In this document: piece after piece, positions 14,747 through 24,822 of the stretch
Layout: the number at the start of each line of letters is the position of its first letter
Position numbering within the stretch: position 1 is the stretch's first letter
Assembly (NCBI GenBank): GCA_016842085.1
Contig: JAEVEX010000073.1
Span: forward strand, 1 to 64,000
Source: Candidatus Thermoflexus tengchongensis
Lineage (GTDB): Bacteria; Chloroflexota; Anaerolineae; Thermoflexales; Thermoflexaceae
Direction: 5' to 3'
DNA: 64,000 bases
Translations under genes and position numbers: made by a program
Notes under the pieces: generated by a model
Databases searched by the model: none
Told to the model about the DNA's origin: nothing
Seen by the model: only the letters and a program-made list of their open reading frames with translations

Positions 14747-15826
14747 ATGGCCTTCGTTGTAGAGGATCTGCGTGATCTCATCGAATTGTTACGCCTTCAT
14801 CCAGAGTGGCGTCAGCAGCTGTGGTCGCTGCTGGCTACAGAAGAGCTTTTGCGTCTGCCAGCGGAATTTCAGAACTTCCGCGATCAGACGTTCGAATCCT
14901 TCCGAAAGACAGTAGAAAAGGGCTTCCAGCGGGTGGATGAGCAGATCGTCGCCCTGGTGGAGACCCAGCGGCGGACAGAGGAGAGCCTCCAGCGTCTGAA
15001 TGAGACCTTCAGCGCTCACCGCAAGGAGTTTCTGGAGCTTCGGGAGGAGTTCCTGGCCTATCGGGTGGAGACGGACCGTCGCTTCGCCGAACTGGCAGAA
15101 GCCCAGCGGCGGACGGAAGAAGGCCTGGCCGCGCTGCGCCAGGAGTTCCTGGAACATCGATCGGAAACCGAACGCCGCTTCGCCGAGCTGGCAGAAACAG
15201 TGCGGCGCCTGAGCGAGGCCTTCACCGCCCATCGGGAGGAGTTCCTGGCCTATCGGGCGGAGACGGACCGTCGCTTCTCCGAACTGGCAGAAGCCCAGCG
15301 ACGACATTACGAAGAATTCGTCGCCTACCGGGCGGAGACAGAGCACAACTTCGCCGAGCTCTGGAAAGCAGTCCACGCGCTGACCCGGGATGTATCGGTT
15401 TTGAAGCGGAACGATCTGGAACGCCAGTATCGTGAGCGGGCCGCCTCTTATTTCGGACGTCCCGATTTCCGGAAAGTCCAGGCGCTCTCCGCCCAGGAGC
15501 TGACGGACGCCCTGGCAGACGCCCTGGATGCAGGGGTGATCACGCCTGAGGATTACGCAGAAGCCCGGCGGGTTGATCTGGTGATCCGTGGTCAGTGGAA
15601 GGATCGCCCGCTGCATCTGGCCCTGGAGGTTTCCTGGGTTCTGGATCGGCGGGATATCGAGCGGGCGGTTCGTCGAGCCCGGATCCTTCAAAACGTGCTG
15701 GGCGAGACTTGGCCGGCGGTGGCGGGCCGACAACTCACCCGGGGGGCCCGGGAAGAGATCCGTCGGCTACGTCAGGAGGGTCAGCCGGTGGTAGTCGCTT
15801 CGAACGGCGTGGTGGATTGGCCCTGA
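14747..15826 (+). CDS. Coiled-coil protein with nuclease-like C-terminal domain
   Basis: A 359-residue protein. After an N-terminal stretch with LLRLPAEFQNFR, residues about 45-215 are a long coiled coil built from degenerate repeats such as EEFLAYRxETDRRFAELAEAQRR. The C-terminal part (about 220-359) contains VDLVIRGQ and ALEVSW, which resemble the D-xx-ExK core of PD-(D/E)XK-like domains in the DUF3782/COG5493 group common in thermophiles. Function unknown. AGGAGGAGA precedes the ATG. Two related genes occur in the window (37455 and the right edge). Confidence 0.65.
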   Translation: MAFVVEDLRDLIELLRLHPEWRQQLWSLLATEELLRLPAEFQNFRDQTFESFRKTVEKGFQRVDEQIVALVETQRRTEESLQRLNETFSAHRKEFLELREEFLAYRVETDRRFAELAEAQRRTEEGLAALRQEFLEHRSETERRFAELAETVRRLSEAFTAHREEFLAYRAETDRRFSELAEAQRRHYEEFVAYRAETEHNFAELWKAVHALTRDVSVLKRNDLERQYRERAASYFGRPDFRKVQALSAQELTDALADALDAGVITPEDYAEARRVDLVIRGQWKDRPLHLALEVSWVLDRRDIERAVRRARILQNVLGETWPAVAGRQLTRGAREEIRRLRQEGQPVVVASNGVVDWP

Positions 15827-23072: not shown

Positions 23073-23204
23073 ATGCCGTTCGGAGGGTTTATCAACGCGC
23101 TGCCGCCAGGGGTCTTCATCCTGGTTCATCTGGTGGCCTTCCTGATCGGCGCCTACTTCGCCTATCAGAGCTTCCGCGCAGGTGCCGCCACCTTCGGCTG
23201 GGGG
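23073..23204 (+). pseudogene. Small membrane protein, 5' half (split by a TnpB element)
   Basis: Codes for MPFGGFINALPPGVFIL and a continuing hydrophobic stretch up to ATFGWG, about 44 residues with one membrane helix. AAGGAGG precedes the ATG. After TGG GGG the frame runs into transposon sequence and stops at 23231. The rest of the protein is found in a compatible frame at 24655-24822, so this is one gene cut in two. Together the halves give about 100 residues with two to three membrane helices. No family recognised. Confidence 0.75.
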
Positions 23205-23299
23205 GTTGCCAGCAGCTGCCGTTTTTGTTAACATCCACTTCAGCTATGAGGCTCTACGACTGGGCCTGCCAGCAAGGAGCGGGCTCTGGAGGCGATGGA

Positions 23300-24598
23300 A
23301 TGCGGGTAGTCCAGGCCTTTCGCTTCGAGCTTGACCCCAACGCCGCGCAGCGCATCGCCCTGGCAAAGCATGTCGGGGCCGCCCGCTTCGCCTACAACTG
23401 GGGCCTCGCTCGTTGTATGGAGGCGCTGAAGAAGGAAGAGCGCATCCCTTCCGCTGTGGAACTCCACAAGGCGTGGAACCGCTGGAAGCGGGAGAACGCC
23501 CCCTGGTGGGTGGAGGTGTCCAAGTGCGCCCCCCAGGAGGCCTTTCGGGACCTGGAGCGGGCTTTCCGCAACTGGAGAGAAGGCCGATCTGGATTTCCTC
23601 GCCTCAAGCGCAAGAAGGCGCTTGACGACAACAAGGCCCGCCTGACCGGATCCATCCGCGTGACGCCCCGGCACGTGCAGCTGCCCCGCATCGGAAGGGT
23701 TCGCGTCCAGGAGCGGACGGACAGGCTCCTGAATCTCCTGCGGGCGAAGAAAGCGCGGGTTCTTTCCGCCACCATTTCCCGCGAGGCGGACCGGTGGTTC
23801 GTGAGCCTGACCTGCGAGGTGGAGATCCCCGATCCCGACCCCCTGCCCCCCGACGCCCCGGTGGTGGGTGTGGACATGGACCTGGAGGATTTCGCCGTTC
23901 TCGCGGATGGGGAAAAGATCGAACGCATTGGCTTTGGGGAAGTCCGAGATAAGATTCGGAAGCTGGACAAGCGGCTGCGCCGGGAGCAGCGCCGCCTGTC
24001 CCGGCGACAAAAAGCGCTCCACCCGGATCCCAAGGATCCCCAGCGCAAGCATCCCTCCCGGCGCTACCTCAAGCAACTCGTGAAAGTTCAGCGCCTCCAC
24101 CGCCGCATCCGCAACCTGCGAACGGATTTTCTGCATAAAGTCTCCACCTGGCTTGCGAAAGCCAAGCGGGTCTATGGGGTGGAGGACCTTAATCTCCGCG
24201 GGATGATGCGGCGGCGGAGGCAGGGGCCTCATCTTTCCCGATCCCTGGCCGAGCAGGCCTGGGGGACGTTTTTGCGGATGCTGAAATACAAATCCGAGCG
24301 GTATGGGTCGAAGGTGATCGTGGCGGATCGCTTCTTTCCGTCCTCCAAAACCTGCTCGGCCTGCGGCGCGGTGAACCGGAGCCTGAGGCGGTCGGATCGG
24401 GTGTTCTGGTGCCCAGAGTGTAGCTTGGCGATGGATCGGGATGAGAACGCGGCCCTGAACCTCCGAAACTATGGGCTGGCCGTCCTGAACGGCCCTACCG
24501 GGAGTTCCCCGGGAAGTGACGCCCGTGGAGATCGGCGCTGCGGCGGAACGGGCGCGAGGCCCGGTCTACGAGCATCCGGTCGGCGAAGCGGGAAGTGA
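23300..24598 (+). CDS. tnpB: TnpB RNA-guided endonuclease (transposon-encoded)
   Basis: A 432-residue TnpB, the ancestor-type of Cas12 nucleases. The N-terminal wedge region (FRFELDPNAAQRIAL, FAYNWGL) is followed by a helical part. A split RuvC domain follows: first Asp in VVGVDMDLEDFAVL near residue 192, Glu in YGVEDLNLRGMM near 295, and the final Asp in AMDRDENAALNL near 380. The zinc finger CSACGAVNRS...CPEC lies between the last two. All three catalytic acids are present, so it should be active. GGAGG precedes the ATG. The tail GPTGSSPGSDARGD and the downstream region typically encode the omega RNA. No TnpA is present. Confidence 0.9.
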   Translation: MRVVQAFRFELDPNAAQRIALAKHVGAARFAYNWGLARCMEALKKEERIPSAVELHKAWNRWKRENAPWWVEVSKCAPQEAFRDLERAFRNWREGRSGFPRLKRKKALDDNKARLTGSIRVTPRHVQLPRIGRVRVQERTDRLLNLLRAKKARVLSATISREADRWFVSLTCEVEIPDPDPLPPDAPVVGVDMDLEDFAVLADGEKIERIGFGEVRDKIRKLDKRLRREQRRLSRRQKALHPDPKDPQRKHPSRRYLKQLVKVQRLHRRIRNLRTDFLHKVSTWLAKAKRVYGVEDLNLRGMMRRRRQGPHLSRSLAEQAWGTFLRMLKYKSERYGSKVIVADRFFPSSKTCSACGAVNRSLRRSDRVFWCPECSLAMDRDENAALNLRNYGLAVLNGPTGSSPGSDARGDRRCGGTGARPGLRASGRRSGK

Positions 24599-24601
24599 CC
24601 G

Positions 24602-24637
24602 GTCATCTATGAAGCCCTTCTGGGTGAAATAGATGAC
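24602..24637 (+). ncRNA. Right-end hairpin, probable 3' part of the TnpB omega RNA
   Basis: GTCATCTAT and ATAGATGAC form a perfect 9-base stem, with an inner GCCC/GGGT pairing. It begins 3 bases after the tnpB stop and ends about 17 bases before the inferred right border. Omega RNAs of TnpB end here, and their guide is the flanking host sequence starting near 24655. Confidence 0.55.
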
Positions 24638-24654
24638 AATGCGTCACAGAACGG

Positions 24655-24822
24655 TTCACGCTCTACGCGCTGGCCGAGATCTTCTACATCACCTATCACC
24701 TCGATCTCACGGTCGTCCTCTTCGCCCACACCCTGGCCGAGGTCCTGGATCTGCTGGCCTTCATCGTGTTGTTCGTCGGGATCTCCCAGACGGCCCTGGC
24801 CGCACGCCGGGTGCGCGCGTGA
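24655..24822 (+). pseudogene. Small membrane protein, 3' half
   Basis: In the frame TTC ACG CTC TAC this codes for FTLYALAEIFYITYHLDL, then membrane segments through VLFVGISQTALAARRVRA and a TGA at 24822. It lacks a start codon and ribosome site, and continues the protein begun at 23073. Histidines in TYHLDL and FAHTLAE lie in or near membrane segments. Confidence 0.75.

What the first reader, a model, noticed from the sequence alone, without database searches (positions are those of the whole stretch)
23073..24822. TnpB-only element splits a small membrane-protein gene
The halves at 23073-23204 and 24655-24822 rejoin in frame (GWG + FTLYALAE) to a roughly 100-residue membrane protein next to the TrmB gene and a terminator. 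The insert carries an apparently catalytic TnpB and no TnpA, so mobility needs a transposase supplied elsewhere. The clean rejoining allows the precise target site to be worked out.
Basis: partly seen in the sequence, partly recalled or inferred. Interest (0 to 1): 0.6.

Follow-up and report, generated by a model that had tools for sequence, protein, structure and literature searches.

The report
Transposase-less IS607 TnpB element in gene
A 1.45-kb jumping DNA element that kept its RNA-guided DNA-cutting gene (tnpB) but lost its own transposase has landed in a small membrane-protein gene of a hot-spring bacterium (genus Thermoflexus); relatives with the empty site show exactly how it sits, and shared deletions suggest that such stripped-down copies keep moving on borrowed transposase.

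Summary
In the nearest congener, Candidatus Thermoflexus japonica HRbin22, the gene is intact (99% aa) and the site empty, CTGGGGG|TTCACGC. The insert adds 1450 bp, with GG at both borders and no other duplication. "TnpB-only" is right for gene content. The missing TnpA, however, is not the IS200/IS605 tyrosine enzyme that "TnpA" usually suggests: sister copies carry an IS607 serine recombinase (189 bits, cut-off 110), and the ends meet host DNA at GG. The window copy is an internal-deletion derivative. It keeps the left end, a promoter-like site and about 11 codons of tnpA, in frame with tnpB. The same deletion lies at a different site in HRbin22, and each genome has the other's site empty, so the transposase-less form probably moves in trans. 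The catalytic and zinc residues are present. The right end encodes a covarying omega RNA whose guide matches the empty allele behind GGG. TnpB is lopsided: its N-half is 72-84% identical to the family, its RuvC half 48-53%, where ordinary members keep 69-75% across three phyla. A swapped nuclease half is likelier than fast drift, but unproven. Congeners also carry 295-bp forms holding only ends plus omega RNA. Nothing was tested experimentally.

The parts
23073..23204 (+). 5' half of the split small membrane-protein gene (MPFGGFINALPPG...FGWG)
   Evidence: Full-length uninterrupted homologues in G008, G004 and G000:C2
23204..23205 (+). Left GG core (crossover dinucleotide) inside a six-G run; exact position uncertain by 1-2 bases
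   Evidence: GG at the left border of 16 of 18 family copies aligned here (two have a single G or a poor left end); empty-site comparisons
23206..24652 (+). Element body between the two GG cores (left end may equally be 23205)
   Evidence: Comparison with the empty site in G008 and with 17 other copies
23205..23278 (+). Left end (LE): 74 bp shared with tnpA-bearing copies (75-85% nt)
23206..23234 (+). Promoter-like TTGCCA-17-TAACAT in the LE (TTGACA-17-TATCAT in other copies); the old tnpA start lies 11 nt after the -10, which would suit a leaderless mRNA (inference)
   Evidence: 1 found against 0.2 expected
23246..23278 (+). Remnant of tnpA: start codon and about 11 codons (MRLYDWACQQG; intact tnpA begins MKLSDWARQQG), in frame with tnpB
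23300..24598 (+). tnpB, 432 aa, IS607-type. By alignment the RuvC residues are D192, E295, D379; zinc ribbon CSAC at 352 and CPEC at 371
23843..24487 (+). RuvC/TNB half of tnpB (aa about 182-396): 48-53% identical to all relatives found except its HRbin22 sister (84%)
24485..24654 (+). Right end / omega RNA (reRNA) scaffold, overlapping the 3' end of tnpB and ending ..CAGAACGG
   Evidence: 41-pair consensus, 98% of cells paired, 7 pairs with changes on both sides in 17 copies; covariance-model hit 188.6 bits
24653..24654 (+). Right GG core
   Evidence: Every right end recovered ends ..AC|GG
24655..24674 (+). Predicted guide (TTCACGCTCTACGCGCTGGC): flanking host sequence, first bases of the 3' gene half
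   Evidence: Exact GG+20-nt match in 9 congener genomes only here and at the empty allele G008:C2:97119
24653..24822 (+). 3' half of the split membrane-protein gene, to its stop

Best explanation
This is a non-autonomous, TnpB-only derivative of an IS607-family transposon that inserted by GG/GG serine-recombinase crossover into a small membrane-protein gene of a Thermoflexus species. Shown by sequence: the empty site, the GG borders, homologous ends in tnpA-bearing copies, the internal deletion that removed all but about 11 codons of tnpA, the conserved catalytic residues, the covarying omega RNA, and the same deletion at a different site in a second species. Inferred: an IS607 TnpA made by another copy acts on the retained ends in trans, excising the element as a circle and inserting it at GG. 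TnpB is expressed from the former tnpA promoter and start. TnpB loaded with the right-end RNA cuts any allele that lost or lacks the element (GGG motif plus the 20-nt flank), so that repair copies the element back. The transposase-less form thus persists by guided cutting plus borrowed transposase.
For: Empty site with exact join. IS607 TnpA between homologous LE and tnpB in sister copies: NF033518 189 bits (cut-off 110), PDB IS1535 TnpA E=2.7e-41. TnpB scores best on IS607_TnpB, 331 against 275 bits for IS200_TnpB. GG borders and conserved ends across 18 copies; further empty sites for a 295-bp form, for G003_C29 and for G008_C3. Same LE-to-tnpB spacing (107 bp) and deletion joint in the window and G008_C3 at different, reciprocally empty sites. 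Pairs G003_C29/C10 (129 bp) and the two 295-bp forms likewise share deletions at different sites. Omega RNA. Guide and target. Literature: IS607 needs only TnpA, leaves no duplication and prefers (G)GG (PMC6188088, PMC4058570); IS607 TnpB ISXfa1 has TAM GGG (PMC10711439).
Against: No intact family TnpA was found in the window's own assembly: the C81 copy has a stop at codon 6 and a palindrome insertion near its end. The source of transposase is therefore unidentified (95% complete assembly). The sister copies are only 84% identical, so the deletion is old and recent movement rests on the empty sites alone. The guide matches the empty allele by construction, so that match is not independent proof of cutting. 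No expression or cleavage data exist.
Confidence: 0.8

Rival explanations
1. The element is an IS200/IS605 (or IS1341-type) TnpB-only element moved by a Y1 tyrosine TnpA as single-stranded DNA.
For: TnpB-only architecture; the Pfam domains bear IS605 names; two Y1_Tnp hits exist in the genome.
Against: Sister copies with the same ends carry a serine recombinase. Borders are GG on both sides. TnpB is IS607-type. Of the two weak Y1 hits, the one on C97 is flanked by REP-like palindromes and looks like a RAYT.
Confidence: 0.03
2. The copy arrived as a complete IS607 and lost tnpA in place afterwards; it never moved without its own transposase.
For: Deletion derivatives of many kinds exist, including the partial tnpA in G000_C88.
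Against: The window and G008_C3 share the same deletion joint and spacing at different sites, each empty in the other's genome. Two further deletion types (G003 129-bp, 295-bp forms) also occur at more than one site.
Confidence: 0.15
3. The odd RuvC half of TnpB arose by fast divergence in place, not by exchange with another TnpB.
For: In trees of both halves the pair window + G008_C3 falls at the same place, at the base of the family, so topology does not show a donor. No closer donor was found in 298 class genomes, plasmids or viral contigs.
Against: Branch leading to the pair: 0.78 changes per site in the C-half, against end branches of 0.07-0.09 in the N-half. dN 0.44-0.48 against 0.10-0.12, while the two sisters keep dN/dS about 0.16 in the C-half. 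Identity falls abruptly near aa 182-210 and returns to 93-98% nt at the omega RNA.
Confidence: 0.35
4. The TnpB here is an exapted host regulator (TldR-like) rather than a transposon nuclease.
For: No tnpA, long-lived lineage under purifying selection.
Against: RuvC residues D192, E295, D379 and zinc cysteines are retained by alignment; ends and omega RNA are intact and mobile; the insertion disrupts a gene rather than sitting beside a conserved target.
Confidence: 0.03

Closest known systems
IS607-family elements with tnpA-tnpB, e.g. on Thermus thermophilus HB8 pVV8 (WP_014677632/WP_014677633) and Rhodothermus marinus pRHOM17201
   Same: TnpB N-half 72-79% identical; an IS607 transposase gene sits immediately upstream of tnpB in both records
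   Different: They keep tnpA and an ordinary RuvC half (about 70% to other Thermoflexus copies); the window copy lacks tnpA and its RuvC half is only 49-51% identical to theirs
IS1341 group (TnpB-only elements with LE and RE)
   Same: Only tnpB between element ends (definition in PMC9956272)
   Different: The origin of IS1341 elements is stated there as unclear; here derivation from IS607 by deletion is visible, so by that paper's rule (over 20 bp of transposase sequence) it counts as an IS607 derivative
ISXfa1 TnpB (Xylella) and ISFba1 TnpB, experimentally tested IS607 TnpBs
   Same: G-rich TAM (GGG; AGGAG or GAGGG), right-end guide RNA (PMC10711439, PMC11061315)
   Different: No RAGATH-18 or other significant Rfam match here; activity untested
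ISDra2 TnpB (PDB 8bf8) and the solved TnpB 8iaz
   Same: Full-length alignment, E about 1e-53 to 1e-55, catalytic and zinc residues aligned
   Different: ISDra2 has an AT-rich TAM and a Y1 partner (background knowledge; AT-rich preference noted in PMC11061315)

Membership tests
IS607 family | Serine recombinase TnpA associated with the same ends | tested here: met
   Not in this copy, but in sister copies with homologous LE and RE: NF033518 189 bits, PDB IS1535 TnpA E=2.7e-41. The window copy keeps about 11 codons
IS607 family | Insertion at GG with no target duplication beyond the dinucleotide | tested here: met
   position ambiguous by 1-2 G
IS607 family | IS607-type TnpB | tested here: inconclusive
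   Best NCBIfam hit is IS607_TnpB with 331 bits, below its strict cut-off of 350; IS200_TnpB 275 (cut-off 425). Consistent with the divergent RuvC half
IS607 family | Circular double-stranded intermediate | not testable with these tools
   Needs PCR or sequencing reads
IS200/IS605 family | Y1 HUH transposase acting on the ends | tested here: not met
   No Y1 gene in any copy; the genome's two Y1 hits are weak (25 bits) and lie elsewhere
IS1341 group (TnpB-only) | Only tnpB between element ends | tested here: met
IS1341 group (TnpB-only) | No transposase-derived sequence over 20 bp (rule of PMC9956272) | tested here: not met
   About 33 bp of tnpA start retained
TnpB/OMEGA nucleases | RuvC triad and zinc ribbon | tested here: met
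   D192, E295, D379 and the CxxC pairs align with solved TnpBs
TnpB/OMEGA nucleases | Right-end guide RNA | tested here: met
   Covarying structure in 17 copies, controls far lower
TnpB/OMEGA nucleases | RNA-guided cleavage | not testable with these tools
   Needs expression or biochemistry

The most novel reading that the evidence does not exclude
IS607 in Thermoflexus has split into three layers living off one transposase: full elements; long-lived TnpB-only elements whose TnpB has received a foreign RuvC half while keeping the family's N-half (target-motif and RNA recognition) and right-end RNA; and 295-bp elements that carry only the ends plus a guide RNA and would borrow both transposase and nuclease.
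Probability: 0.35. Interest if true: 0.6.

Novelty: new variant of a known kind. Interest (0 to 1): 0.42.

Why it matters
Whether TnpB-only elements are autonomous or decayed copies of IS605 or IS607 is stated to be unclear (PMC9956272). Here the parent, the deletion joint, several target sites and their empty alleles can all be read, so trans-mobilisation of TnpB-only and guide-RNA-only forms becomes directly testable in a defined thermophile family. A TnpB with a conventional recognition half and an outlying nuclease half would also be a natural experiment in how freely the two halves can be exchanged.

Tried and rejected
IS200/IS605 origin, rejected by the serine recombinase in sister copies and the GG borders. 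Rfam match for the omega RNA (RAGATH-18 was the lead): none. A donor for the RuvC half: none found in 298 class genomes, plasmids or IMG/VR; the genome's own two other TnpBs (C64, C81:1325) are only about 35% identical. Topological conflict between N- and C-half trees as proof of exchange: not seen, only branch-length conflict. AU tests of one Thermoflexus clade: p 0.085 (N) and 0.059 (C), not decisive. Empty sites for G000_C88, C97 and C1 were only partial or imprecise. An approximate-pattern script timed out. The genome-contig scan gave only the HRbin22 sister.

Full report
WHAT IS THERE. The window lies in a Thermoflexus assembly (its nearest named relative by this element is Candidatus Thermoflexus japonica HRbin22; the assembly is G000, 3.89 Mb, 95% complete). 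The two halves of a 99-aa membrane protein at 23073-23204 and 24653-24822 rejoin to a protein that is uninterrupted in G008 (99% aa), G004 (90%) and on a short contig of the same assembly, G000:C2 (89%). Flanks align to G008 at 97% and 92% nt and stop at the same base pair. The empty site reads CTTCGGCTGGGGG|TTCACGCTC; in the window it reads CTTCGGCTGGGGGG-TTGCC...CAGAACGG-TTCACGCTC. The insert adds 1450 bp. Because G008, G004 and G000:C2 all lack it, insertion in the window lineage is the simpler reading, rather than loss in the others.

FAMILY. The insert matches six other full or partial places in the genome. In the copy on contig C81 an ORF with the serine-recombinase signature YARVSSADRKDDLQRQ lies between the same left end and tnpB. 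The best-preserved TnpA of the genus (G004:C1:2772049-2772558) scores 189 bits on NF033518 transpos_IS607 (cut-off 110) and matches the solved IS1535 TnpA at 2.7e-41. The window TnpB scores best on IS607_TnpB (331 bits; strict cut-off 350), ahead of IS200_TnpB (275). In 18 aligned copies from five genomes the left ends follow GG and read GTTG[AC]CA..CAGCTGCC..TATCAT or close variants (one copy has a single G and one left end is poorly matched), and the right ends read ..AC|GG. Published work describes just this for IS607: crossover at GG, (G)GG preference, no duplication, TnpA alone required (PMC6188088, PMC4058570). Y1 transposases are not part of any copy; the genome has two weak Y1 hits elsewhere.

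BORDERS AND TARGET MOTIF. Three further empty sites were read: the 295-bp G006_C72 copy (empty in G004 and G003, 99%), G003_C29 (empty in G004, 95%) and G008_C3 (empty in the window's own genome, G000:C1). In those three the empty site has one G more than a join at GTTG predicts, so the element most likely starts at TTG (23206) with core GG at 23204-23205; the window against G008 fits a start one base earlier, and a change in G-run length in either lineage would explain this. All four empty sites show GGG directly before the guide-matching side. This agrees with the TAM GGG measured for ISXfa1 TnpB (PMC10711439) and GAGGG or AGGAG for other IS607 TnpBs (PMC11061315).

HOW TNPA WAS LOST. The window copy keeps 74 bp of left end, including the start codon and about 11 codons of tnpA (MRLYDWACQQG against MKLSDWARQQG), then joins in frame to tnpB (MRLYDWACQQGAGSGGDG-MRVVQAF...). 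A promoter-like TTGCCA-17-TAACAT lies in the left end, 11 nt before the old tnpA start; expression of tnpB from there is an inference. G008_C3 in HRbin22 has the same spacing (107 bp) and joint, at another site, and each of the two sites is empty in the other genome. G003_C29 and C10 share a second deletion type (129 bp), and G006_C72 and G004_2351 share a 295-296-bp type with neither gene. Repeated occurrence of one deletion type at several sites is best explained by movement after the deletion, hence in trans. In the window's own genome no intact family TnpA was found: the C81 copy has a stop at codon 6 and a palindrome near its end.

TNPB. By alignment to solved TnpBs the RuvC residues D192, E295 and D379 and both zinc CxxC pairs are present. 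Residues 1-181 are 80-86% identical to other Thermoflexus copies and 72-79% to Thermus and Rhodothermus plasmid TnpBs. Residues 182-396 are only 48-53% identical to any of these except the HRbin22 sister (84%), although ordinary members keep 69-75% in that half across three phyla. dN in the RuvC half is 0.44-0.48 against 0.10-0.12 in the N-half, yet window and G008_C3 show dN/dS about 0.16 there, so the half is under purifying selection. Nucleotide identity returns to 93-98% where the omega RNA begins. Trees of the two halves do not conflict in topology, only in branch length (0.78 against below 0.1), and no donor was found. Exchange of the nuclease half is the likelier reading, at about 65%; fast divergence is not excluded.

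OMEGA RNA AND GUIDE. The right end 24485-24654 is the most conserved part of the family. A 41-pair consensus keeps 98% of cells paired in 17 copies, with 30 double-change cells (shuffle mean 9.4; slid controls at most 46% paired). A covariance model finds 22 places in the nine genomes, some with neither tnpB nor tnpA beside them. The guide (24655-24674) with GG matches exactly only the window and the empty allele in G008; the second gene copy on G000:C2 has three mismatches at guide positions 3-5. The match to the empty allele follows from the geometry and is not independent evidence.

MECHANISM. Most likely the element moves on IS607 TnpA from another copy, as a circle, into GG, and the TnpB-RNA complex cuts alleles lacking the element so that repair restores it. 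The first part is inferred from shared deletions, the second from published IS607 TnpBs; neither was tested here.

VERDICT. It is a new variant of a known kind, of moderate interest, chiefly because parent, derivative and empty sites are all readable.

Noticed in passing
G000 and G008 genome-wide; e.g. L079 2012 and 2845, L078 (reverse strand), L080 (reverse strand), L064 2854: A palindrome of about 30 bp (TTGGAGTGCGGTGCCTAGGCACCGCACTCCA) occurs dozens of times in the window's genome and in G008, but in none of seven other congeners; it interrupts tnpA, tnpB and omega-RNA loops of IS607 copies, sometimes replacing element bases. Variants flank one of the two Y1 transposase genes (G000:C97 around 14797-15066), so it looks like a REP/RAYT pair.
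   Followed up: partly
L074 (G006_C72) and L077 (G004_2351): 295-296-bp elements with IS607 left end and full omega RNA but no tnpA or tnpB; the G006 insertion is absent at the same site in five other Thermoflexus genomes.
   Followed up: yes
L079 (G000:C81): The only near-complete family TnpA of the window's genome has a TGA at codon 6 and a palindrome near its end; its tnpB is broken by another palindrome.
   Followed up: partly
L016 (G000:C2:1-3000): A second copy of the split gene and its TrmB-type neighbour region, 75-87% nt, on a 7.5-kb contig: a paralogue or another strain in the assembly.
   Followed up: partly
G000:C61:9970-10533: A different IS607-like serine recombinase (46 bits, below cut-off, open frame); not shown to act on these ends.
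   Followed up: no
L064 left of 1562; G000:C56:23552-23643 and G000:C74:86759-86851: About 93 bp beside the G008_C3 insertion are repeated elsewhere in G000 (93-96%) but missing at the matching empty site, so another repeat may have inserted next to it.
   Followed up: no
L083 (G000_C18), L076 (G008_C131), L190: Omega RNA copies with extra hairpins inserted in loop regions of the structure, which leave the paired core intact.
   Followed up: no
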